A stretch of 15,864 nt of DNA, taken from Acidobacteriaceae bacterium. Its GTDB lineage: Bacteria; Acidobacteriota; Terriglobia; Terriglobales; Acidobacteriaceae. Below the pieces are notes generated by a model. The model worked only from the letters and a program-made list of their open reading frames with translations, did not search any database and was not told the origin of the DNA. Of this stretch, positions 1 to 15,673 are shown piece after piece. The stretch covers positions 1 to 15,864 of the forward strand of contig PMTP01000110.1 in assembly GCA_003167305.1 (NCBI GenBank), written 5' to 3'. A program made the position numbers and the translations under genes. Within the stretch, counting starts at the first letter, position 1. Every line of letters starts with the position of its first letter.

Positions 1-800
1 CGGAGAATCTTGCAGCTCTCCATGATCTCCAGAGCGCGAACCAGCAAGCGGGCCGTCACGTCGCCGGCCGGCTGCACCGGCACGTCGAAATCCATCTCCG
101 CGTAGGCCGCGTAGGGAGCGGCGCGGCGAAGGTCCTGGGGCAGCCCGGAGGCACGCGCCACGGGACCGACAACGCCGAGCGCGACTGCCTTCTCGGTGGT
201 CAGAACGCCGATGCCCGCGCAGCGCGAACGAGCCGTCCGGCTGGTGGTGAAAATGGGAATCACGGTGCGGCCCATCTCCAGCTCAAGCGCCTCGACCAGT
301 CTGAGAATCGCCTGCGGGTCGGTAATGTCGCGATTGACCCCGCCGATGCGGTTCATCGAATAGTTGACGCGGTTGCCGCTGATCGCCTGAAGCACGTCCA
401 TCACCTTCTCGCGCAGTTCAAAGCAGGTCATGAACATCGTCTTGAAGCCCATCAGCTTGGCGGCGATGCCCGCCCAGAGTACGTGCGAGTGCAGCCGCTC
501 CAACTCCGCCATGATGACGCGAATATACTGTGCGCGCGGCGGTGGCGTGAGGCCGGTCAAGCCCTCCATGGCGTTGCAGAGCGTGAGCGTGTGGATATTC
601 GAACAGATGCCGCAGACCCGCTCCATCAACGCGATGACCTGAATGTAGTTGCGCGTCTCGGCCAGGTGCTCGATGCCGCGAAAGTTGAAGCCGATGTGCA
701 GCTTGGCGTCGATCACCGTCTCGCCTTCGCAGATCAGATCCAGCTTGTAAGGTTCTTCGAGCGCCGGGTGATATGGGCCCATGGGGATTTTGTAGCTCAT
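1..800 (-). CDS. Group 4 [NiFe] hydrogenase large subunit (NuoD/HycE C-terminal-like), partial at left edge
   Basis: The first 266 residues are visible; the rest lies beyond the window. The protein begins MSYKIPMGPYHPALEEPYKL and matches the NuoD/HycE/EchE large-subunit family. Residues 61-66 read RVCGIC followed by SNIHT, the N-terminal L1 motif whose two cysteines (C63, C66) bind the Ni-Fe centre in true hydrogenases; complex I NuoD proteins lack these cysteines. So the sequence supports a catalytic hydrogenase rather than a complex I subunit, but the C-terminal CxxC needed for proof is outside the window. Start: ATG at 800 with AGGAG (806-810) five bases upstream, and the ATG overlaps the stop of the NuoC-like gene (TCAT on the plus strand at 797-800). 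In the enzyme this subunit holds the H2-producing/consuming site on the cytoplasmic side. The subgroup within group 4 cannot be fixed from this fragment. Confidence 0.92.
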   Translation of the reverse strand, partial: MSYKIPMGPYHPALEEPYKLDLICEGETVIDAKLHIGFNFRGIEHLAETRNYIQVIALMERVCGICSNIHTLTLCNAMEGLTGLTPPPRAQYIRVIMAELERLHSHVLWAGIAAKLMGFKTMFMTCFELREKVMDVLQAISGNRVNYSMNRIGGVNRDITDPQAILRLVEALELEMGRTVIPIFTTSRTARSRCAGIGVLTTEKAVALGVVGPVARASGLPQDLRRAAPYAAYAEMDFDVPVQPAGDVTARLLVRALEIMESCKIL

Positions 801-1222
801 TTTTTCTCCTGACTGGCGGCCACGGCGTCGCGCAGGTTCACGCCCGATGTATCACCCTGGCGCAGCAGCAATGGTTCGTACTCACGGCCCTGAAAGTCCA
901 GGGAATATTCCTCATGAATCTCGCGCTCAATCCAGTCCGCGCCCTCGCACAAGTCAAAAATGCTTTCAATCGAATTGCCGGTCAACAGAAAGGAAAAGCC
1001 CAGCAACTGGCCATCGAGGTCCCAGTGGTATTCCAGGCGAAAGCCCTCTTCTTTTGGCAACTGATAGGCGGTGATGGTGATGAAGCGCGCATGAAGCTCG
1101 TTCATCGCCTTGGCCAGCTCGCGCACATTCGTCGCGCCCAGCGTGAGCCAATGCACGCCGCCCTTTTCAATCCAGGGTTCGGTGATCCCCAGTTTTTCTG
1201 AAATGCTTTCGAGCGGGGTCAT
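797..1222 (-). CDS. NuoC/HycE N-terminal-like hydrogenase subunit (30 kDa-subunit family)
   Basis: 141 residues, starting MTPLESISEKLGITEPWIEK. The open frame extends further upstream, but that part overlaps the ferredoxin-like gene in another frame. The chosen ATG at 1222 has GGAGG (1229-1233) at good spacing and forms an ATGA overlap (1219-1222) with the upstream stop. The segment GNSIESIFDLCEGADWIERE, then IHEEYSLDFQG, matches the NuoC/HycE N-terminal signature (SI..IFP.A.W.EREV.D.FGI.F.G). In complex I and group 4 hydrogenases this subunit packs against the large and small subunits and helps hold the peripheral arm together. In E. coli HycE the same domain is fused to the catalytic domain; here the two are separate and coupled genes, as in Ech and Mbh. 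No membrane segment. Confidence 0.9.
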   Translation of the reverse strand: MTPLESISEKLGITEPWIEKGGVHWLTLGATNVRELAKAMNELHARFITITAYQLPKEEGFRLEYHWDLDGQLLGFSFLLTGNSIESIFDLCEGADWIEREIHEEYSLDFQGREYEPLLLRQGDTSGVNLRDAVAASQEKK

Positions 1223-1641
1223 TGCGTGCCTCCAGGGACGGGTTCTGCCGCGGGTACGGCGGCTGCCGGCGGCGCAGCAACGGCCGGCTTGACAGTCTGC
1301 TTGCGGGCCACGGTGTAGGATTTTTTCAACTCGCCGATGGTCAGGTAAATTGGCGGGCACTCCGAGTCCTGGCTGAGCGCGTGTTCCTTGCAGCCCTCGA
1401 CGCACCGCCCGCAGAAGGTACATTGGCCGGGATCGTAGCTCCAGGTGAACTCGCCCTTGCCGCCCTTGAACTCGATGGCGCGCGCGGTGCAGCGCATCTT
1501 GCAGATTGCGCAGCCCGAGCAGAGCGCGGGATCGAAGCGGACAAGGCCGCGGTAGTGCTCACTCACTTTGGGGCGCGCGGGAAAGAGCGTTGTCCGCGAG
1601 CCGCCCCACAGGTTCTTCCACATCATGGTCAGAATATTCAT
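1219..1641 (-). CDS. 2[4Fe-4S] ferredoxin-type hydrogenase subunit (NuoI/HycF/EchF-like)
   Basis: 140 residues. Two complete 4Fe-4S ligand sets are visible: C41-x2-C44-x2-C47-x3-C51 (CSGCAICKMRC) and C74-x2-C77-x2-C80-x3-C84 (CTFCGRCVEGC). This is the electron-entry subunit expected to pass electrons from soluble ferredoxin to the small subunit. The proline that usually follows the last cysteine of each motif is absent (CT and CK). From about residue 115 there is a low-complexity Ala/Pro/Val tail with no obvious role. ATG at 1641 overlaps the stop of the HycD-like gene (1638-1641, ATGA), so translation is probably coupled. Its position between the membrane anchor and the NuoC-like gene supports assignment to this complex rather than to a free ferredoxin. 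Confidence 0.9.
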   Translation of the reverse strand: MNILTMMWKNLWGGSRTTLFPARPKVSEHYRGLVRFDPALCSGCAICKMRCTARAIEFKGGKGEFTWSYDPGQCTFCGRCVEGCKEHALSQDSECPPIYLTIGELKKSYTVARKQTVKPAVAAPPAAAVPAAEPVPGGTQ

Positions 1642-2564
1642 GCTCTAAACCTCATAAAAAGCGCGGATGCAACGGCCAGAACCGCGAAGATCAGCGTGCA
1701 TTGCCAGTAAAAGCGCACCGTGGTATCGATCTGCAAGCGCGCCGTGGCCGCCGCCACCACCGACAGCAGAAGCACGAGGCCGAAGGAGAGCGCGACGAAG
1801 ACCAGAGCGGCAACCCACCAGAGCGTGAAGGCCGGAGCAATCAGCGTGGCCACCAGGCCCGTCGCCGCAACCCACTCCAGCCCATGCGAAAGCTCCCACA
1901 TGGCCAGCTCGGGTCCGGCGTACTCGGTCATCGGCCCGGAGTAGATCTCCTGCTCCGCGTTGGGCAGCGAGAAGGGATTCAAGTGCAGCTTGGCGGGCAG
2001 GCAAACCAGAATCGCCACAATGCCCAGCCAGCGCAACGGCGAGCTGGGCAGTTGCGCCAGCGCCTGGAGGCTGAAGGTGTGCTGCGAGGCGGCGATGGAA
2101 AGAATGGCCAGCAAGAAGACGATGTTGTACGAGACGCTGAGGACGGCTTCGCGCGCCGAGCCGATCTCGCCGAAGATTGAGCCGGAAGAAAAGCCTGCTG
2201 CGATGATGCACATCGACGGAAGTTCAAGCAGCGCCAGCAGCAGAATCAGATCGCCCTGAAAGCCGCCCGATGCGGGCAGCACCGGCAACAGGCCCACCGC
2301 GCCCGCCGCCGCCGAAACCGCAATCAGCGGCCAGGCCCTCATCAGCAGGCCGGCGATGCCGATGCGTGGTGGCGTGGACTTGCCCAGCAGCTTGATGAAG
2401 TCGAAGAAGGGCTGCATAAAGGGCGGCCCAATGCGCCCCTGCATGCGCGCAACCGCCTTGCGTTCGACCCAGAGGAAGAACCACGCGGCGGGCACGGCGA
2501 AGAGCAAGCCGGGAAAGATGAGCAGGCGCGCTAAGGCAGTTTGTAATTCAAGAAACAGATTCAT
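1638..2564 (-). CDS. Group 4 hydrogenase membrane anchor subunit (NuoH/HycD/EchB-like)
   Basis: 308 residues, very hydrophobic, about eight membrane segments. Residues 32-48 (WVERKAVARMQGRIGPP) are the classic NuoH/HycD signature; DFIKLLGKS follows at 55-63, GSAREAV at 135-141, and the conserved cytoplasmic loop PNAEQEIYSGPMTEYAG lies at 201-217. The family forms the membrane base next to the small subunit and links the redox reaction in the peripheral arm to ion pumping. Length is as expected for HycD/EchB. Start ATG at 2564 overlaps the stop of the small-subunit gene (ATGA, 2561-2564). Loops between helices keep several conserved acidic residues (E34, E136, E204, E206, E215) of the kind implicated in coupling in complex I; this last point is family knowledge, not shown here. 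Confidence 0.93.
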   Translation of the reverse strand: MNLFLELQTALARLLIFPGLLFAVPAAWFFLWVERKAVARMQGRIGPPFMQPFFDFIKLLGKSTPPRIGIAGLLMRAWPLIAVSAAAGAVGLLPVLPASGGFQGDLILLLALLELPSMCIIAAGFSSGSIFGEIGSAREAVLSVSYNIVFLLAILSIAASQHTFSLQALAQLPSSPLRWLGIVAILVCLPAKLHLNPFSLPNAEQEIYSGPMTEYAGPELAMWELSHGLEWVAATGLVATLIAPAFTLWWVAALVFVALSFGLVLLLSVVAAATARLQIDTTVRFYWQCTLIFAVLAVASALFMRFRA

Positions 2565-3109
2565 GCCTGCACCTCTTCATTTTTCGTTTCCGTTATGGCC
2601 GCGCATGAGCAAGCGCCATTGCATCCCGGCCCGACCAAAGGCATGACGACCGGCGCAATGGGCAGCTTTTTCGAGGCTCTCTCGGCCAGAATCTCCGCCG
2701 CCTTGGCGACGCCCTGGATAATGGCGTCGGGACGAGGCGGGCAGCCGGGGACAAAGACATCCACCGGAACGTGCCGGTTGAGCGGCCCGTCCAGCGTACG
2801 GCTGTCAATGAAGACGTTCGTCGTCGCCGGGCAGGAGCCGATGGCCACCACTGCCTTGGGTCCGCAGACCTGGTCGTAGACAGTCTTGATGGCGTTCACC
2901 GCGTTGTGGGTTACGGGTCCGGTGATGCAAAGAATGTCAGCGTGGCGCGGCGAGCCTTCCAGGCGCACACCCAACTGCTCGGCATCGTAACGCGGCGTGA
3001 GGCTGGCGATCAGTTCAATATCGCAGCCGTTGCAACTGCCCCCGTTCATGTGGAAGAGCCATGGGCTGTGGCGCCGGGAGTAGCACATCAATTTGTTCCA
3101 GAGGTTCAT
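2561..3109 (-). CDS. Group 4 hydrogenase small subunit (NuoB/HycG/EchC-like)
   Basis: 182 residues. The four ligands of the proximal [4Fe-4S] (N2-like) cluster are visible: C26 and C29 in GGSCNGCDIE, C93 in IGSCPATTN and C123 in VPGCPPRPD. This is the NuoB/HycG/MbhJ family, which hands electrons to the active site in the large subunit. Start ATG at 3109 with GGAGG (3116-3120) upstream; it overlaps the stop of the fused antiporter gene (ATGA, 3106-3109). The C-terminal end, about residues 160-170, adds a cysteine-rich stretch GPGCNGACSC (C163, C167, C169) that I do not recognise as part of the core family fold. No signal peptide: group 4 small subunits stay cytoplasmic, as the sequence suggests here. 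Confidence 0.92.
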   Translation of the reverse strand: MNLWNKLMCYSRRHSPWLFHMNGGSCNGCDIELIASLTPRYDAEQLGVRLEGSPRHADILCITGPVTHNAVNAIKTVYDQVCGPKAVVAIGSCPATTNVFIDSRTLDGPLNRHVPVDVFVPGCPPRPDAIIQGVAKAAEILAERASKKLPIAPVVMPLVGPGCNGACSCAAITETKNEEVQA

Positions 3110-6100
3110 GGCCTACCTCCCAGCAGCATTTGCAGCGCGTTCGGCCAAATGCCGGCAGCCAGCAGCAGCACCACCAGCGCAACGATCACGGCCTGCAAAA
3201 CAAAAGGCTCCTTTGTTGGATGCGATGGGGTTGGCGGTGGACTCGGCTCGCCCGGCGGACCCCACCAGATGCGGGTCAAAGCCAATGTGTATGCAATCAG
3301 CGCCAGGATCGACGAGACAATGAAAACCCCTGCCAGCGGCCATCCAATCTGCACGGCTGTCTCGTAGAGTCTCCAGCGGCCGATGAAGCCCATCGTCGGC
3401 GGAATGCCCAGCATCGCCAACATTCCAAAGAGGAAGCCAAAGGTGCTGACCGGGTAGCGCACGGCCAGGCCCTTCGGTTCGCCTTCGAGTGCGCCGTCAG
3501 CCTCGGGGCCGCTGAGGCAGATGAAGAGCAATGCCTTGGCCAGAGCGTGAGTAGAGGCTGCAATCACTGCGCCGTCCAACCCAAGCAAACTGATAGAAGC
3601 TGCTCCCAGTATCAGGAAGCCGACGTCCTCGACCGTAGAAAGAACCAGTAGGCGCTTGAGGCTGCATTGCGAAAGCATCAAAAGAGCAGCCAGGAACGAT
3701 GTCGCGGCCGCCACGCACAGCAGCACTGGATGAAGATGGTAGGAGTCAGGAATGGTGCGCGCGGAAACGATGAACTCGCCAAAGGCGGCCATATCAACGA
3801 CGGCAATAATCAAACCTAGAACTACGGCCGGAACTTCGTCGGCCAGACTGAGCAGCCAGAAGAATAATGGCACCGCGGCCAGCTTCACGCAGACGCTGGT
3901 GATAAACAGCGCCCAAGCCCATTCATACTGTCCCTGCTCCAACAAAAGACCGCTGGCCACAAGGGACAATGCCGAGATAAGCACCACGGCCAGGTAAGTC
4001 AGCTTTGCCGCTTGCGTGCGCGCGCTCTGCCAGACCAGCGCCACGGTCAGGAATGCGCCCAGTTCCAGGAACCCAAGGCGCAACCAATGATTGGGAACAA
4101 CCACAACCAAGCCCGCCACGGTGGCAGCGCCGGCCAGCGTCATCAGTGGCGCAAAGCGGCGGCTCTTCTTGTGCGCGAGAGCGGCCAGCACCAAGGCGAG
4201 TCCGGCCAGGCCGCAAGCGGCAATCAGCAGCTTCGGCATCTCCAAATTCGGCAAGGCAATGATCGAATTCCAGCCGGATACGCCAAGCGCAAACCAGCGA
4301 ACCCCAGCCAGTATCGCCGCCGCCAGCACTATCACCAGCGCCAATGCATGCCGTTCCATCCACGAAACCACCACGCCCAACCCGCGTGAAGCAGCCAGCA
4401 AGCCGCGCCAAACGCCCAGATAAACCGCGTCCACATTCGACCAGCGGAAGAACTCATGCCAGTTTTGCAGGAAGATGCTGGAGAAATCGCCCGCAGTCAG
4501 TCTTCCCTGCTCTGACAACGGCTCGCCTCCGGTGAAGATTCCCCCTCCGGCCAGCGCCGCTCCGGCACTCTGCGTAGGACGCGAGACGTAAGCAACCGCG
4601 TAGATCGCCCCGCCCACAATCAACGAAAACACCGCCAGCACCAGGCCGCCCACGCTGGAGAAGCTGCCCGCATCGGACGACAGCCCAAGCCACGTTACAT
4701 TCACCGCGCTCATTTGCAGCGCATTCAGAATCGGATTGAGCAGGTAGTTGACCGCCAACTGCGGCGCGACGCCCAGAATGACGCTGCCAGCGGCCAAAAA
4801 GCCCATGCCCCAGACCATCGTCGGCGGGGACTCGTGCGCGTCTTTGGTCGCCTCGGTCGTGGGGCCCAGAAAGACCGCGCTGGTAGCCTTGGCGCAAAGA
4901 AAGACCGTGCCCAGGCTGACCGCCCAGGCCACCATCGCGGGAACGGCCCATCCGGCCTGCAACGCCGCCGCGTAGAGCATCCACTTACTGGCGAAGCCGC
5001 TCATCAGCGGAACGCCCGCCATGCTGCCCACGCCGATCAGCCACGACAACGTCGTCCGCGGCATCTTCTGCGCCAGGCCGCCCAGCTGGTTCATGTCGCG
5101 CGTGCCAGAGGCGTGCTGCACCGAGCCGGCGGTCAAAAACAGCCCGCCTTTGAAAAATCCGTGATTCAGGCAATGCAGCAGCCCCGCGGCAATCGCCAGC
5201 GGCGTGCCGATGCCGATGCCCATCATCATGTAGCCGATCTGGCTCACCGTCGAGAAGGCCAGCATACGCTTCAGATCCGTCTGCACCATCGCGTACATCA
5301 CGCCCACGGCCATCGTGACAGTGCCGATCCAGACCAGAGTCGCGCTGCCCCAGGCGAATCCGCCATTCACGGGCCACGCGCCAAAGCTGTGCATGCGGCA
5401 GGCCAGATAAACGCCGGCCTTCACGTAACAGGCAGCGTGCAGCAGGGCGCTCACCGGGGTGGGCGCGGCCATCGCTTCGGGAATCCAGGTGTGCAGAGGC
5501 ACCTGCACGGATTTCGCCACCAGCGCCACCAGCATCAGAACAAAAACGCCGCCGGTAAAGGCATGCGCCACCGCCGGATCGGTCCACAGCGCGCTGCCCG
5601 TGCGGTGGTAGACCACCAGAATCGCCGCCAGCAGGCCGTAGCCCGCGATGTGGGTCATGAGCAGCACTTTGCGCGCTCCAGCGACCGCCTCGCGGTTGGT
5701 GTACCAGAAGCCCACCAAACTGAACGAGCACAACCCGACCAGCTCCCAGCAGAGATAGAAGAAGAAGAGGTTGGCGCTGTAGACCAGCCCAACGAAGCCG
5801 GCGATGAAGACCAGCATCGAGGCGTAGAAGCGGGTGGCGGCCTTGTCGTGCGCCATGTAGCCGATGGAATAGAGCAGCACGAATGCGCCCAGCCCCGACC
5901 CCATCAAAGCAAAAAGGACGCTGAGCGCGTCCACGTGAAAGACCAGAGCCAGCGGCCCATCCCAGTGGAGCACGTTCAGATCGATAGCCTGCCCTGCCTT
6001 GACCCAGCCAATCAGCCCCGCCACGGAAGCCACTGCCGGCAGGCAGGCAAGAAAGGCCAGTATCCCCTTAGTCCTTGCGGAACAGAGCTTTGCGACAAGA

Positions 6101-6186
6101 ATCTGCAGCGCGGCGCCCAGCAGAAGCGAGCACGGCGCGATCAGGATAAGAGTTGCTGCGTTCATACCTGCAATGCTAGTTTGCAA
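3106..6186 (-). CDS. Fused double antiporter-like subunit (NuoL-like + NuoN-like) of the group 4 hydrogenase
   Basis: 1026 residues counted from a TTG at 6186; typical NuoL is about 600 and NuoN about 480. Module 1 (about 10-610) is NuoL/HyfB/MrpA-like: WELVGLCSFSLVGFWY with E148, KSVQVPLHTWIPEAM with K225, K256 in YVKAGVYL, TDLKRMLAFSTVSQIGY, NHGFFKGGLF, GFASKW with K401, and the NuoL-type NVDAVYLGVWRGL stretch near 585. Module 2 (about 615-1026) is NuoN/HyfF-like: FLELGAFL (E708), VKLAAVPLFFWL (K768), CSLKRLLVLSTVEDVGF, THALAKALLF (K884). Together about 25 membrane segments. Role inferred: ion translocation driven by electron flow to H+. Start is uncertain: TTG at 6186 has GGAG five bases upstream, whereas ATG at 6165 (residue 8) has no spaced ribosome site but fits a leaderless start. 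First gene of the operon; ATGA overlap with the small-subunit gene. Confidence 0.88.
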   Translation of the reverse strand: MQTSIAGMNAATLILIAPCSLLLGAALQILVAKLCSARTKGILAFLACLPAVASVAGLIGWVKAGQAIDLNVLHWDGPLALVFHVDALSVLFALMGSGLGAFVLLYSIGYMAHDKAATRFYASMLVFIAGFVGLVYSANLFFFYLCWELVGLCSFSLVGFWYTNREAVAGARKVLLMTHIAGYGLLAAILVVYHRTGSALWTDPAVAHAFTGGVFVLMLVALVAKSVQVPLHTWIPEAMAAPTPVSALLHAACYVKAGVYLACRMHSFGAWPVNGGFAWGSATLVWIGTVTMAVGVMYAMVQTDLKRMLAFSTVSQIGYMMMGIGIGTPLAIAAGLLHCLNHGFFKGGLFLTAGSVQHASGTRDMNQLGGLAQKMPRTTLSWLIGVGSMAGVPLMSGFASKWMLYAAALQAGWAVPAMVAWAVSLGTVFLCAKATSAVFLGPTTEATKDAHESPPTMVWGMGFLAAGSVILGVAPQLAVNYLLNPILNALQMSAVNVTWLGLSSDAGSFSSVGGLVLAVFSLIVGGAIYAVAYVSRPTQSAGAALAGGGIFTGGEPLSEQGRLTAGDFSSIFLQNWHEFFRWSNVDAVYLGVWRGLLAASRGLGVVVSWMERHALALVIVLAAAILAGVRWFALGVSGWNSIIALPNLEMPKLLIAACGLAGLALVLAALAHKKSRRFAPLMTLAGAATVAGLVVVVPNHWLRLGFLELGAFLTVALVWQSARTQAAKLTYLAVVLISALSLVASGLLLEQGQYEWAWALFITSVCVKLAAVPLFFWLLSLADEVPAVVLGLIIAVVDMAAFGEFIVSARTIPDSYHLHPVLLCVAAATSFLAALLMLSQCSLKRLLVLSTVEDVGFLILGAASISLLGLDGAVIAASTHALAKALLFICLSGPEADGALEGEPKGLAVRYPVSTFGFLFGMLAMLGIPPTMGFIGRWRLYETAVQIGWPLAGVFIVSSILALIAYTLALTRIWWGPPGEPSPPPTPSHPTKEPFVLQAVIVALVVLLLAAGIWPNALQMLLGGRP
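6173..6178 (-). promoter_or_regulatory. Candidate -10 box for the hydrogenase operon
   Basis: TAGCAT on the minus strand, four of six matches to TATAAT, with no good -35 box, as expected for an activator-dependent promoter. Transcription would begin at about 6166, next to the ATG at 6165, giving a practically leaderless message. If translation instead starts at the TTG at 6186, the true promoter must be further upstream and this hexamer is coding. Confidence 0.3.
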
Positions 6187-6902: not shown

Positions 6903-6917
6903 TCGCGGGTGGCGGAA

Positions 6918-7451
6918 ATGGAAGATGCGCGCATGATTGCGGCCTGGATCGCACCGGGGCGCGAGCAGACAGCAGCGGGCGAGGAAGGCTTCAGGCGGCT
7001 CTATGAAGCGACTTCCCGCCCGCTTTGGGGCTATCTGCAACATGCCAGCGGACGCCCCGATGTGGCCGACGACCTGCTCCAGGAGACCTATTGCAAGTTT
7101 CTCTTGCGCGAGACGCCGGCGATGGATGAGGCTGAGAGCCGCTCCTATCTCTTCCGCATCGCCACCAACCTGCTGCACAACCGGTTTCGCAGCCGCGACG
7201 ACGCCGCCCTGGAAGAACCTGCCGAATGTGGCACGCAAACGGACGAAGACGCGCGCCTGGATGTGCGGGCGGCGATGCGCCATCTGAAACCGCGCGAGCG
7301 GGAGCTGCTTTGGCTGGCGTATGTTGAAGGAATGAGCCACGCGGAGATTGCCACCGCCACCGGACTGGGCGCAATGAGCATTCGGATTCTGCTCTACCGC
7401 GCCCGGCAAAAGGCGAGCCAGTTACTCCGTCCCGAGAGGATCAAATCATGA
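6918..7451 (+). CDS. RNA polymerase sigma factor, ECF (sigma-70 family)
   Basis: 177 residues from ATG 6918, which has GGTGG (6908-6912) five bases upstream; a GTG at 6909 is possible but has no spaced ribosome site. Region 2 is seen at about 25-91: DVADDLLQETYCKFL (48-62) is the core-binding 2.2 segment and RSYLFRIATNLLHNRFR (75-91) covers 2.3/2.4. Region 4 is at about 122-170: LKPRERELLWLAYVEGMSHA and EIATATGLGAMSIRILLYRA, a helix-turn-helix that reads the -35 box. No region 1.1 or 3, and no C-terminal extension, so a minimal ECF factor. It overlaps the anti-sigma gene by four bases (ATGA, 7448-7451), the usual arrangement for a sigma/anti-sigma pair, and so is likely held inactive at the membrane until a signal releases it. 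Target genes are unknown. Confidence 0.93.
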   Translation: MEDARMIAAWIAPGREQTAAGEEGFRRLYEATSRPLWGYLQHASGRPDVADDLLQETYCKFLLRETPAMDEAESRSYLFRIATNLLHNRFRSRDDAALEEPAECGTQTDEDARLDVRAAMRHLKPRERELLWLAYVEGMSHAEIATATGLGAMSIRILLYRARQKASQLLRPERIKS

Positions 7452-7906
7452 AGCCAATGAGTTGCGAGCACGAGAGCAGCATCATCCGGGCCTTGCACTC
7501 GGGCGAGTGGAGCAGCGAATTGCGGCTTCATGTGGCAGAGTGCGTGGATTGCAGTCAGGCGCTGCATCTGGCCGAAGCGCTGCGCGCAGCAGCCCGGCGC
7601 GCGGAAATTCATTGCCATCCGCCCGATGCGCATTGGATTTTGCAGCGGTCGCGGCGGATGGCACGCGAAATCGCCGTGCGGCGCATGACCCGCCTGCTTG
7701 CGGCCATGCGCGCCCTGGCGGCAGTCTATGTGGCGGCGGCGGCTTTGTGGCTTTTGCGCGGCTCTGCGGCGCTTCAGTACCGTGAAGTCGCTTCGTCGAT
7801 GCACGGAGTCTCCAACTGGTTCGCACTGATGGGGGCCATGGTTGCCGCGGTGTGCGTGGTTGCCGGCCTGTGGCCGATTCTGCGCGATAGCTCTGAAGCG
7901 AGCTAA
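7448..7906 (+). CDS. Membrane anti-sigma factor with HxxxCxxC zinc motif
   Basis: 152 residues. The N-terminal part carries LRLHVAECVDCSQAL, with H28, C32 and C35 giving the H-x3-C-x2-C motif of zinc-binding anti-sigma (ZAS-like) domains; C6 or H7 may supply a fourth ligand. Two hydrophobic segments follow, about 85-104 (the ALAAVYVAAAALWLL stretch) and 122-143 (NWFALMGAMVAAVCVVAGLW). The expected topology puts the sigma-binding N-terminus in the cytoplasm with a helical hairpin in the membrane and almost no extracytoplasmic sensor, so any signal is probably sensed within the membrane or through the zinc site. Start ATG 7448 with GAGAGG (7435-7440) upstream and coupling to the sigma gene. The protein ends 33 bases from the convergent carbonic anhydrase gene; no clear terminator lies between them. 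Confidence 0.82.
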   Translation: MKPMSCEHESSIIRALHSGEWSSELRLHVAECVDCSQALHLAEALRAAARRAEIHCHPPDAHWILQRSRRMAREIAVRRMTRLLAAMRALAAVYVAAAALWLLRGSAALQYREVASSMHGVSNWFALMGAMVAAVCVVAGLWPILRDSSEAS

Positions 7907-8909: not shown

Positions 8910-9922
8910 CTAAAACGCTCCCACCGTCTGCCGCAAACTATACGAGCTGAGCGTCTTGATGTAGTTGCCGCGGTCAAACGGAGAGGTGTCGGGGACCGAG
9001 CGGCGGCTCAGGCAGCCGCGCGTCTCCCACAGCGAGGTGTACTCGCGCTTCTCCAGCCAGTAGCGCACGTCGGCCAGCACTCTGCCGATGTGCTCGATGC
9101 CGTGAATATGCAGCGCCGAGGCCATCATCGTCACGCCGGCTCCGGCCATGATGCCCTTGAGCACGTCTTCCGCCGAGTGAACGCCGCCGGAGATGGCCAG
9201 GTCGAGGTTCAAGTGGCCGTAGAGGATCGCCGCCCAATGCAGCCTTGGCAGCAGCTCCGAGGGCGTGGAGAAGTGCAGCGTGGGCCGCACCTCCAGCGTC
9301 TCGATGTCGAAGTCCGGCTGATAGAAGCGGTTGAAGAGCACCACGCCGCGAGCGCCCGCCTCCTCCAACTGGGCAACCAGGTGCGGAATGCTGGTAAACG
9401 ACTGCGACAGCTTTACCGATACCGGCACATTCACTGCGGTGGTAACCGCAGTCACCAGCTCCAGGATTTGCCCTTCAAGAGCCGTGGAAGTCTGGCTCTT
9501 GTCGGTGGCCAGCGCGTAGGTGTTCAACTCGATGGCGTCGGCGCCGGCCTGCTCCACGTCCTTGGCAAAGCGCACCCAGCCGCCGGTGGTGGCGCCATTC
9601 AGGCTGGCCAGAATGGGAATCTTCACCGCATCCTTGCAGCGCCGCAGGTGCTCCAGATAGACCTCCTGCGTCATGCGGTAGTCGTTTAAATCAGGCAGGT
9701 AGCCAAGCGACTCGGCAAAGGAATCCGTGCCCCGCGAGAGGTCATCGTCCAGCGCCTTCGACTCCAGCGCCAACTGCTCCTCGAAGAGCGACACCAGAAC
9801 AATCGCCGAGGCCCCCGAATCCTCCATCCGCTTCACATTGTCAATGTTCTCTGACAGCGGCGTGGAGGAAACCACGATTGGACCGCTCAGCTTCAATCCA
9901 AGATACTGCGTGGAAAAATCGA

Positions 9923-9926
<4 letters not shown>
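8910..9926 (-). CDS. Dihydroorotate dehydrogenase-like flavoprotein paired with PFOR
   Basis: 338 residues, TIM-barrel FMN protein of the DHOD superfamily. It begins MIDFSTQYLGLKLSGPIVVS, has VSVKLSQSF (169-177) on a core strand, and ends the barrel with the FMN-phosphate region LAISGGV and MAGAGVTMMASA (243-271). The DHOD signature around N-x-S-x-P-N with the catalytic Cys/Ser loop is replaced by IELNTYALATD (132-142), so it is unlikely to be a pyrimidine-pathway PyrD. Genes of this type commonly sit beside PFOR genes in several phyla (family knowledge); their reaction is not established to my knowledge. Start ATG 9926 has GGAGGTG upstream and overlaps the PFOR stop (ATGA, 9923-9926), so the two proteins are made together. 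A role as an electron-transfer or regulatory partner of PFOR is inferred. Confidence 0.85.
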
Positions 9927-13576
<3,650 letters not shown>

Positions 13577-13623
13577 TACCAATTCCCTCATAGTGCGGCC
13601 CGCGGAAAATCTGCCGCTCCTCT

Positions 13624-13649
13624 GAGTCTCATCTCCAGGGGTCAGACTC
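13624..13649. repeat. Inverted repeat in the PFOR leader
   Basis: GAGTCT (13624-13629) and AGACTC (13644-13649) are separated by 14 bases, about 50-75 bases upstream of the PFOR start codon. It could form a weak hairpin in the transcript or be an operator. No T run. Confidence 0.3.
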
Positions 13650-13651
13650 GC

Positions 13652-13667
13652 TGTGATGCAAAGCACA
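13652..13667. promoter_or_regulatory. Crp/Fnr-family-like operator upstream of PFOR
   Basis: TGTGA-TGCAAA-GCACA matches TGTGA-N6-TCACA at nine of ten positions. It also overlaps a longer symmetric arrangement GTGATG-N7-CATCAC (13653-13671). The centre is about 83 bases upstream of the PFOR ATG. No convincing -10 box could be placed at class I or class II distance by eye. Confidence 0.45.
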
Positions 13668-13769
13668 TCACGGGGGTGAAATCCCATATTGTGCGATTAA
13701 GTTCTTATAATGAAGCCCCGAATAATCTCAGATATGGTCTTTGTTTTGTTTGAAAAGCCTGGGTTTTCA

Positions 13770-13799
13770 GGTACAGACATGAATCGCGCTTGATATACT
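13770..13799 (+). promoter_or_regulatory. Candidate extended -10 promoter of the repeat protein gene
   Basis: TGA-TATACT (13791-13799) is an extended -10 element with five of six matches; a poor -35 (GGTACA, 13770-13775) lies 18 bases before it. Transcription would start at about 13806-13808, at the ATG itself, implying a leaderless or near-leaderless message, which fits the lack of a ribosome-binding site. Confidence 0.45.
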
Positions 13800-13807
13800 C
13801 GCGCGTA

Positions 13808-15673
13808 ATGGCGAATGAGCAGGAAATCGTACCGGAAAAACTTGCGGAACCGGAAACCGAAGCTGCGCACGAGGAGTTTCCCGTCTCGCAACCGGAGGCC
13901 GAACCCGGCGAAAACGCCGAAGAAGCGCCCCAGCCCGAGCCGGTCGCGCCCGTAGTGGTGGAGGCCGAAAGCGAGGCGGGCTGTCCGATCGAGATGGGAC
14001 GGTACGGCGGACAACTGAGATGCGGCCGCAAACTCCACGCCGCGCTCGAAGGAGTAGACGAGCAGCCTGTATGCCTGATGCACTCGAAAGACCCGGACAA
14101 GCAATTAGGTCCACTTTTTGATGCCTTCTGGCTGGAGTTTGAGAGGATTCTGGAAGAGGCAGGGGAAAATAAGGCCCACTTCGAGGGATTTTTCATTCCC
14201 CGCGCTGACTTCAACCGAAGGACGTTCAAAGCGATCTGCCGATTTGATCGAACGACCTTCATGCAGAGTGCAGACTTTAGCGGAGCGACCTTCACGCAGT
14301 ACGCACTCTTCAGCAAAGCGGCCTTCACGCAGGAAGTAAACTTCAACATAGTAATCTTCATGCAGAACGTATTTTTCAACGATTCGACATTCGCACAGAA
14401 CGCATACTTTGGCAACGCGAAGTTCATGCAGAACGCATACTTCAGTAAAGTAACCTTCACGAAGGACGCATACTTCAGCGGAGTGACCTTCACGCAGAAT
14501 GCAGACTTCTGCGGAGCGACCTTCACGCAGGACGCAGACTTCGGCAATACGACCTTCACGCAGAACGCAGACTTCGGCAATACAATCTTCAAGCAGAACG
14601 CAGGCTTCAGTAGAGTGACCTTCACGCGAAACGCATCCTTTGGCGATGCGACTTTCACGCAGAACGTAGGTTTCAGCAATGCGATCTTCAAGCAGAATGC
14701 AGACTTTAGTAGAGTGAATTTCAAGCAGGACGCAGATTTTTGTGAAGCGACCTTCACACAGAATGTAATCTTCGAGCGGATAGAATTCTGTGGAACGGCC
14801 GATTGGCATGAGTGCAAATTTCTCGATCAAGCGGAATTCCGGCATATAGATTTCGAGCCTAAGGAGCCAGGAAAGCCAGGTGCCGTCTTTATCATGGCGA
14901 AATTCGCCAAGCCCGGAGAGATCGTCTTCGAGGATGTCGATCTCAGCCGCGCTCTCTTTCTCAACTGCGATGTGAGCGCAGTCAGGTTTACCTCCTCCGT
15001 AGATTGGGCAGAGCGCAAGGGGCATCGCGGCCTTGCGGTCTTTGAGGAGGAGATTCTTCTCGATCCGGAGCTTTCCCAAATACAAGAGGAATACGGAGAG
15101 TTCGACTATGACGCGGTGGAGCAGATCTACCACCAGTTACACAAGAATTACGATGACCGTTTGGATTATCGCAAGGCCAATGACTTTCATTATGGCGAGA
15201 TGGAGATGAGGCGGTTGGAGCCGCCATCATACGGTCGATTACTGACCGTGCGCTGTATCCTCCGCCCTTGGATGAGTCTGCTCAATCTTTATCGGCTGGC
15301 CAGCGACTACGGCAACAGCTACGCCAAGCCTGGAGCCTGGCTGCTTGCAACCCTCCTGGCGGCGACGCTCTTGTTTCCCATCCTAGGGCTTGAACAGAAG
15401 CAGCCCAAACCAGGAAATCCCGCTGGAAACGCAATCGTGACCTACTCCAGCGTTTGGAACCGACAGGACACGGATACGAATAATCGTTGGACAGAAGCAA
15501 AACTGATCGGCAAGAGTGGAATCACGGCTATCGATACGGCCACATTTCAAAGAAATCCGGAGTACACGCCCGTCTATCCGCGGGGCCGCATCCTGGGAAT
15601 CCTCGAAACGTTGCTGACTTCCTCCCTCTTCGCGCTCTTTCTGCTCGCCATCCGCCGTCAATTCCGCCGGTAG
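13808..15673 (+). CDS. Pentapeptide_3-type repeat membrane protein
   Basis: 621 residues from ATG 13808; an in-frame TTG at 13790 falls on the -10 box and is rejected. Order: acidic Glu/Pro-rich N-terminus (1-57); a Cys/His cluster C59, C72, C89, H92 (RCGRKL ... PVCLMHSKD) like a small zinc site; twenty consecutive 11-residue units with Phe spaced 5 then 6 (about 129-348, e.g. FTQNADFGNTT), then a degenerate cap; a helical stretch with IYHQLHKNYDDRLDYRKAND and FHYGEMEMRR (440-469); two membrane segments (about 510-528 and 595-615) at the C-terminus. The family is known for right-handed beta-helix repeats, and the C-terminal pair of helices resembles a channel-like anchor seen in many such proteins. 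No function is established. No ribosome site, no signal peptide; it is transcribed divergently from PFOR. Confidence 0.87.
   Translation: MANEQEIVPEKLAEPETEAAHEEFPVSQPEAEPGENAEEAPQPEPVAPVVVEAESEAGCPIEMGRYGGQLRCGRKLHAALEGVDEQPVCLMHSKDPDKQLGPLFDAFWLEFERILEEAGENKAHFEGFFIPRADFNRRTFKAICRFDRTTFMQSADFSGATFTQYALFSKAAFTQEVNFNIVIFMQNVFFNDSTFAQNAYFGNAKFMQNAYFSKVTFTKDAYFSGVTFTQNADFCGATFTQDADFGNTTFTQNADFGNTIFKQNAGFSRVTFTRNASFGDATFTQNVGFSNAIFKQNADFSRVNFKQDADFCEATFTQNVIFERIEFCGTADWHECKFLDQAEFRHIDFEPKEPGKPGAVFIMAKFAKPGEIVFEDVDLSRALFLNCDVSAVRFTSSVDWAERKGHRGLAVFEEEILLDPELSQIQEEYGEFDYDAVEQIYHQLHKNYDDRLDYRKANDFHYGEMEMRRLEPPSYGRLLTVRCILRPWMSLLNLYRLASDYGNSYAKPGAWLLATLLAATLLFPILGLEQKQPKPGNPAGNAIVTYSSVWNRQDTDTNNRWTEAKLIGKSGITAIDTATFQRNPEYTPVYPRGRILGILETLLTSSLFALFLLAIRRQFRR
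14192..14851 (+). repeat. Array of twenty 33-bp coding repeats
   Basis: Each unit encodes 11 residues of the form F-x-Q-N-A-x-F-x-x-x-x. The central units are very similar at DNA level: 14522-14554 and 14555-14587 differ at 3 of 33 bases. Outer units are more diverged, as expected for an array growing from its centre. The repeat also leaves long stop-free frames on the opposite strand, which are not genes. Confidence 0.9.

What the first reader, a model, noticed from the sequence alone, without database searches (positions are those of the whole stretch)
3106..6186. NuoL-like and NuoN-like antiporter modules fused into one 1026-residue protein
Complex I and Hyf-type hydrogenases encode these pumping subunits as separate proteins. 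Here a single reading frame, with no stop or frameshift, carries a full NuoL-like module and a NuoN-like module, giving a hydrogenase with two putative ion channels in one chain and only six genes. A fixed 1:1 ratio and a covalent link between pumps would be unusual and could alter coupling.
Basis: partly seen in the sequence, partly recalled or inferred. Interest (0 to 1): 0.8.

Follow-up and report, generated by a model that had tools for sequence, protein, structure and literature searches.

The report
Two proton-pump modules in one protein
Soil and peat bacteria of the phylum Acidobacteriota make a membrane hydrogen enzyme in which two proton-pump-like modules, encoded as two neighbouring genes in related bacteria, are joined into one long protein; it is a real, recurring gene fusion and a new twist on a known type of enzyme.

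Summary
Window 3106-6186 is one open frame (1026 aa from TTG; more likely 1019 aa from ATG at 6165) with two antiporter-like modules, heading a tightly overlapping six-gene group 4 [NiFe]-hydrogenase operon. It is no assembly error: the frame is open through the module boundary in 27 of 27 genus loci that reach it, and three Acidobacteriota genomes of other families have the fusion. The nearest relatives found, on Azospirillum plasmids, keep the same gene order with the modules as two genes (616 and about 400 aa) and group with the fused enzymes by large subunit (support 100/99). So adjacent genes were most likely fused. Module 1 is NuoL/MrpA-like. Module 2 is a shortened (about 12 helices), faster-evolving module, nearest NuoN by a small margin, with Asp (217 of 217) in the column where NuoN has Lys (5 of 5). 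There is a precedent: CooM-type proteins of CO-linked six-gene hydrogenases also chain antiporter modules, but in the opposite order and apparently by internal duplication; one clade with them is rejected (AU p 0.0001). New variant of a known kind. Altered coupling is untested.

The parts
3106..6186 (-). Fused antiporter-like protein, 1026 aa from TTG 6186; probable start ATG 6165 (1019 aa)
4351..6165 (-). Module 1 (residues 1-605, ATG numbering): NuoL/MrpA-like; E141, K218, H243, H331, H335, K339, K394 kept in 217 of 217 fused proteins; includes the lateral-helix region
4216..4494 (-). Residues 558-650: predicted lateral helices (558-572, 576-605), one membrane-spanning helix (607-625), then a poorly conserved linker into module 2
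   Evidence: AlphaFold2 helices (residues 528-580 have pLDDT below 50); dN/dS 0.11-0.63 for 606-650
3109..4215 (-). Module 2 (residues 651-1019): shortened antiporter module, about 12 helices; TM5 E701, TM7 K761, TM8 D791 (NuoN Lys column), TM11 H873/K877, TM12 R930
2561..3109 (-). NuoB-like small subunit (Fe-S)
   Evidence: PF01058, E 9e-27
1638..2564 (-). NuoH-like membrane anchor
   Evidence: PF00146, E 3e-50
1219..1641 (-). NuoI/HycF-like 4Fe-4S ferredoxin subunit
797..1222 (-). NuoC-like subunit (ATG at 1222, 4-base overlap with the NuoI-like gene)
   Evidence: PF00329 on the longer frame 797-1423; start counted from the translation; ATG visible
3..800 (-). [NiFe] large subunit (NuoD-like), cut by the contig end; the N-terminal CGIC pair is present
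   Evidence: PF00346 and PF00374; the full-length relative in L046 ends in DPCYSCTDR; the window is the whole contig

Best explanation
The fused protein is the membrane pump subunit of a six-gene, ferredoxin-type group 4 [NiFe]-hydrogenase. It arose when two adjacent genes, a NuoL-like and a short antiporter-like gene in the order still kept in Azospirillum, became one frame in Acidobacteriota. Most likely mechanism (inferred): reduced ferredoxin passes electrons through the NuoI-like and NuoB-like subunits to the [NiFe] site; proton reduction there drives a charge and conformation wave through the NuoH-like subunit into module 2 (proximal) and on to module 1 (distal), which move protons (or Na+) outward. 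The NuoL-like lateral helix folds back over module 2 and its end helix runs straight into module 2, so the fusion joins chain ends that should already lie close together. Shown here: the fusion, its recurrence, its relationship to unfused relatives, selection on both modules, retained conduction residues, and the invariant Asp in the TM8 Lys column of NuoN. Inferred: direction, ion, stoichiometry, order of modules in the membrane, electron donor.
Against: Fusion rather than fission of an old fused gene rests on a tree with moderate support for the fused clade itself (82/79). Model pTM is only 0.54, residues 528-580 are below pLDDT 50, and module 2 predicted alone came out poor (59). In the unfused N proteins of Azospirillum and of L206/L212 the TM5 Glu column holds Ser, Cys or Gly, so that residue is not a constant of the module. 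No functional data. AOR is absent from 37 genomes searched, 23 of the genus and 14 of the order, so the electron donor here is unknown. The fused gene is patchy: 20 of 36 same-genus genomes (my count).
Confidence: 0.72

Rival explanations
1. Artefact: a missed stop, frameshift or misassembly joins two genes.
For: A frame break or N-gap occurs inside module 1 in three relatives, L049, L050 and L022; many of the genomes are MAGs.
Against: 27 of 27 genus loci that reach the boundary are open through it; 212 of 240 listed homologues are at least 940 aa long; a named strain (Occallatibacter savannae AB23, L047) has it; purifying selection runs on both sides.
Confidence: 0.01
2. It is a CooM protein: the CO-linked CooMKLXUH hydrogenase family, whose pump subunit is also one long chain.
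For: Same set of six gene types; CooM of Rubrivivax gelatinosus is 1255 aa with 29-33 predicted membrane segments (PMC4257681, passages); CooM-type frames L191, L194 and L203 carry three PF00361 stretches each.
Against: Module order is opposite: CooM runs half-module, HecN/HyfF/HyfB-like, then L-like; the two full CooM modules group with each other (support 92); fused + CooM large subunits as one clade rejected, AU p 0.0001; no CooS match in the window or the 29 genus loci, several with short flanks; gene order differs (B before H).
Confidence: 0.04
3. The ancestor of the whole clade had one fused gene and Azospirillum split it secondarily.
For: Support for the fused clade is only 82/79.
Against: The deeper relatives L206, L211 and L212 also have separate L and N genes; the 120 best homologues of the Azospirillum L gene are all 515-634 aa.
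Confidence: 0.1
4. Module 2 is not a pump but a structural or charge-relay spacer; only module 1 translocates ions.
For: Lacks the first helices; evolves about three to five times faster than module 1 (path lengths); Asp in the TM8 Lys column of NuoN.
Against: In 217 fused proteins TM5 acid and TM7 Lys are kept in all, TM11 Lys in 211 and a basic TM12 residue in all; dN/dS 0.08-0.23.
Confidence: 0.25

Closest known systems
AOR-adjacent group 4 hydrogenase operon on Azospirillum plasmids (NZ_CP054618.1, NZ_CP029357.1, NC_016587.1, NC_016586.1)
   Same: Same gene order L-N-B-H-I-C-D; large subunit 53-56% identical; orthologous modules
   Different: L (616 aa) and N (397-409 aa) are separate genes; ferredoxin and aldehyde ferredoxin oxidoreductase genes sit upstream, which the window lacks
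CooMKLXUH CO-linked hydrogenase (group 4c)
   Same: Six subunits of the same types; the pump subunit is a chain of several antiporter modules
   Different: 2.5 modules in the opposite order, apparently from internal duplication; H before B; CODH gene nearby in L191 and L194; separate large-subunit clade
Ech-type hydrogenase (e.g. Butyrivibrio pNP243; the name Ech is recalled)
   Same: Six gene types with one NuoL-like protein
   Different: One antiporter gene only (647 aa), different order, distant clade
Complex I NuoL and NuoN; Hyf-type HyfB and HyfF
   Different: Separate subunits there; both modules score far below NuoL/NuoN family cut-offs; module 2 has His/Lys in TM11 where five NuoN proteins have Tyr/Asn

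Membership tests
Group 4 [NiFe]-hydrogenase | Large subunit with both Cys pairs of the Ni site (motifs recalled) | tested here: met
   CGIC in the window; CGIC and DPCYSCTDR in the full relative L046, whose pump protein is 96% identical to the window's. The window's own second pair lies beyond its contig end.
Group 4 [NiFe]-hydrogenase | NuoB, NuoC, NuoH, NuoI-like and antiporter subunits in one operon | tested here: met
Group 4 [NiFe]-hydrogenase | Maturation gene hypD in the genome | tested here: met
   G000:C149, E 2e-152
CooMKLXUH (group 4c) | CODH catalytic gene cooS beside the operon | tested here: not met
   No CooS match in the window or in 29 genus loci; it matches in L191 and L194, but not in the third CooM-type stretch L203. 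The window's downstream side is cut and several loci have short flanks.
CooMKLXUH (group 4c) | CooM architecture: half-module, N-like, L-like | tested here: not met
   Window order is L-like then short N-like
CooMKLXUH (group 4c) | Large subunit in the CooH clade | tested here: not met
   AU p 0.0001 against one clade
AOR-linked hydrogenase (Azospirillum type) | Orthologous subunits in the same order | tested here: met
AOR-linked hydrogenase (Azospirillum type) | AOR and ferredoxin genes upstream | tested here: not met
   No match in the window and 29 genus loci; AFOR_C absent from 37 genomes, 23 of them of the genus (the same search rings in 5 of 14 control genomes); present with the fused gene in G254, G357 and G333
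NuoN family (module 2) | Score over the NuoN family cut-off (TIGR01770, 332.6 bits) | tested here: not met
   83.3 bits for the half alone
NuoL family (module 1) | Score over the NuoL family cut-off (TIGR01974, 407.5 bits) | tested here: not met
   348 bits, whole chain
HydDB subgroup 4a-4i | Placement against HydDB references | not testable with these tools
   No HydDB set held. A paper reports groups 4b and 4d in Terracidiphilus MAGs (PMC9599518, passages); which one this would be is not known.

The most novel reading that the evidence does not exclude
A second, independent evolutionary route to a single-chain double pump in a minimal six-subunit hydrogenase, in which the proximal module works with a reversed central charge (Asp in the TM8 column where NuoN has Lys). 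The covalent link and the charge swap together would set a distinct coupling step, such as module 2 as an obligatory charge relay that gates module 1, giving a natural two-module minimum for the complex I mechanism.
Probability: 0.25. Interest if true: 0.68.

Novelty: new variant of a known kind. Interest (0 to 1): 0.45.

Why it matters
Complex I and its relatives move protons through a row of separate antiporter-like subunits, and how the signal passes from one to the next is debated. Here evolution has tied two of them into one chain in a small hydrogenase, from genes that stay separate in close relatives, and the proximal module carries an invariant charge swap. Fused and split natural versions allow a direct test of whether linkage and central charge affect coupling. 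It also suggests that the single-chain arrangement known from CooM arose at least twice. For ecology, it points to a widespread hydrogen-metabolising, probably energy-conserving enzyme in peat and soil Acidobacteriota.

Tried and rejected
Artefact or missed stop: rejected. The apparent breaks near residue 355 in L050 and L022 are runs of N in the assemblies, and L049 has a frame break inside module 1; none lies at the module boundary.

Long 'open frames' of 1073-1233 aa reported for other NuoL matches: I fetched ten stretches. In nine the antiporter frames found are separate ones of 441-710 aa; in L090 one stop-to-stop frame of 1003 aa matched over a single antiporter module only. None matches both modules of the fusion in order.

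CooM homology of the fusion: considered as the main alternative and rejected.

PFOR as a conserved electron-donor neighbour: PFOR lies upstream in the window and in L050 only; it gave no match in L046 or the other genus loci, several with short flanks, so it is not claimed as a partner.

Structure of module 2 alone: pLDDT 59 with 16 sequences; its best Foldseek matches are E. coli NuoN (E 1.7e-4), read only as weak support. In the full-chain run the aligner's rows mostly cover residues 1-573, so module 2 was barely tested there.

A sample of 398 genomes of the phylum of Kushneria (G358) gave no large-subunit match at E 1e-80; as Azospirillum has one, that sample was too thin to show absence. 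Literature: searches listed no paper whose title or abstract start describes an L-N fusion in a hydrogenase; subscription papers are mostly not held and only passages were read.

Full report
OBSERVATION. The frame at 3106-6186 is on the minus strand: 1026 aa from TTG at 6186, or 1019 aa from ATG at 6165, without a stop. The nine closest listed homologues have 1019 aa. It heads a run of six genes: fusion, NuoB-like 3109-2561, NuoH-like 2564-1638, NuoI-like 1641-1219, NuoC-like 1222-797 and NuoD-like 800-3. Each stop overlaps the next start by four bases, as expected for a translationally coupled operon. In the relative L046 (pump protein 96% identical) the large subunit is complete and ends in DPCYSCTDR, with ERVCGICSNIHT near its start. 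These are the four Cys of a [NiFe] site (motifs recalled). HypD is in the same genome. The 29 genus-type loci are labelled Acidobacteriaceae, Acidobacteria, Terracidiphilus or Occallatibacter, except L041, labelled Rhodoferax and probably a contaminant contig.

NOT AN ARTEFACT. Of 63 loci, 29 are of the genus type (L024-L052); 23 full-length, 2 cut by a contig start (L040, L048), 1 with a frame break inside module 1 (L049), 1 with an N-gap inside module 1 (L050), 2 ending before the boundary (L051, L052). In all 27 that reach the boundary it is open. Of 240 listed proteins are at least 940 aa; the rest are shorter pieces or proteins. dN/dS over six pairs is 0.04-0.11 for module 1, 0.08-0.23 for module 2 and 0.11-0.63 for residues 606-650.

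DISTRIBUTION. In the genus, 20 of 36 genomes have the gene, whole or in pieces, and 16 do not; of 24 genomes of the same order or class, 23 have no match better than E 1.7e-62 (the level of complex I NuoL) and one has none (my count). Across the phylum, 32 of 297 genomes have a large-subunit match at E 1e-80 or better, at 42 places besides the window. I fetched 19 of these 42 places with wide flanks: 3 (G254, G357, G333; 58-62% identical large subunit, three other families) have the fusion. Of the other 16, 15 have separate antiporter frames and 1 (L160) showed none in the stretch. Elsewhere I read 21 of 44 listed places of a 299-genome sample of the phylum of G061 (record labelled Bacillota) and 15 of 15 of a 297-genome sample of the phylum of G060 (Desulfuromonadaceae), at E 1e-85: none has this fusion; 3 have CooM-type chains, 3 have separate L and short N genes, and the remaining 30 have one or several separate antiporter genes. 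A sample of 398 genomes of the phylum of Kushneria gave no match at 1e-80 and shows nothing.

UNFUSED RELATIVES. Azospirillum plasmids carry the same order L-N-B-H-I-C-D with L of 616 aa and N of 397-409 aa as two genes, behind genes for a ferredoxin and an aldehyde ferredoxin oxidoreductase (AOR). In the three sets compared, BLAST pairs L with residues 8-629 (46-47% identity) and N with 698-1019 (32-35%) of the 1026-aa frame. The three distant fused Acidobacteriota operons also have the ferredoxin and AOR genes directly upstream (the AOR label rests on the N-terminal part of an NCBIfam model, below its cut-off, and on the Azospirillum annotation). AOR (AFOR_C) is absent from 37 genomes, 23 of the genus and 14 of the order. 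The 120 best homologues of Azospirillum L are all 515-634 aa, none fused. Large-subunit tree (30 rows, careful): fused + Azospirillum 100/99; fused alone 82/79, so not firmly shown. Module tree (47 rows): module 1 groups with Azospirillum L (100) and module 2 with Azospirillum N (99), and more deeply with the split genes of L206 and L212 (99 and 96). Fusion of neighbouring genes is therefore the simplest history; fission in Azospirillum is not excluded.

COOM PRECEDENT. CooM of Rubrivivax gelatinosus is 1255 aa with 29-33 predicted membrane segments in a hexameric hydrogenase (PMC4257681, passages). The two full CooM modules group with each other (support 92, not starred). One clade of fused and CooM large subunits is rejected (AU p 0.0001). 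Long antiporter chains in six-gene hydrogenases thus seem to have arisen at least twice, by different routes.

MECHANISM (mostly inferred). In 217 aligned fused proteins module 1 keeps TM5 Glu, TM7 Lys, TM11 His/His/Lys and TM12 Lys in all rows, with the TM8 Lys in 188. Module 2 keeps a TM5 acid in 217, TM7 Lys in 217, TM11 His in 201 and Lys in 211, and a basic TM12 residue in 217. In TM8 module 2 has Asp in 217 of 217; this is the column where five of five NuoN proteins aligned have Lys, while NuoM, NuoL-like and CooM modules have their Lys (where present) one column later. Four of four Azospirillum N proteins have Asp there and L206/L212 have Glu, but these unfused proteins lack the TM5 Glu column (Ser, Cys or Gly). 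TM11 of module 2 has His/Lys as in L-type modules where the NuoN proteins have Tyr/Asn, so module 2 is a mosaic and not a plain NuoN. Helix names follow recalled NuoL/M/N numbering. Module 2 looks like a working but altered conduction module that evolves about three to five times faster than module 1 (path lengths to L033, L047, L018 and L143). I propose ferredoxin-driven H2 evolution with charge passing from the NuoH-like subunit through module 2 to module 1. The electron donor in this genus is unknown; the PFOR gene upstream in the window is shared only with L050 among the loci searched.

PRIOR KNOWLEDGE. Group 4b and 4d hydrogenases are reported in Terracidiphilus MAGs (PMC9599518, passages), without mention of pump architecture in the passages seen. 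Subunit fusions reported for complex I in the passages seen concern C-D and B-C-D (PMC12361115). The listed searches showed no paper on an L-N fusion.

VERDICT. Observation confirmed; interpretation partly right; new variant of a known kind; interest 0.45.

Noticed in passing
13790-15673 (+): 627-aa protein with many pentapeptide-like repeats (ATFTQNADF...), by eye; long minus-strand frames over it are probably shadows.
   Followed up: no
9923-13687 (-) and 8910-9926 (-): Pyruvate:ferredoxin oxidoreductase (TIGR02176, 1799 bits) followed by a dihydroorotate-dehydrogenase-like protein, upstream of the hydrogenase on the same strand but separated by genes on the other strand; the arrangement is shared with L050 but not seen in L046.
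   Followed up: partly
6909-7906 (+): A sigma-factor-like protein followed by what looks like its membrane-bound partner (both named by eye, no family search); homologues lie beside the hydrogenase in L046 and L050.
   Followed up: partly
L050 near 11041; L022 near residue 355 of the fusion; L051, L052, G017:C115: Assemblies of several relatives break or end at almost the same place in module 1 (residues 340-390), with N runs in L050 and L022; probably a shared assembly difficulty.
   Followed up: yes
L041 (4235-base contig labelled Rhodoferax MAG_CA144): Carries a Terracidiphilus-like fused gene (72% identity) on a tiny contig; likely a contaminant of that MAG.
   Followed up: no
L141, L142, L143; L097, L098, L100, L102: A ferredoxin-AOR gene pair sits in front of this hydrogenase type in both Acidobacteriota and Azospirillum, suggesting an aldehyde-oxidising, H2-evolving operon; the passages seen of a 2026 classification of tungsten oxidoreductases (PMC13328260) do not describe it.
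   Followed up: partly
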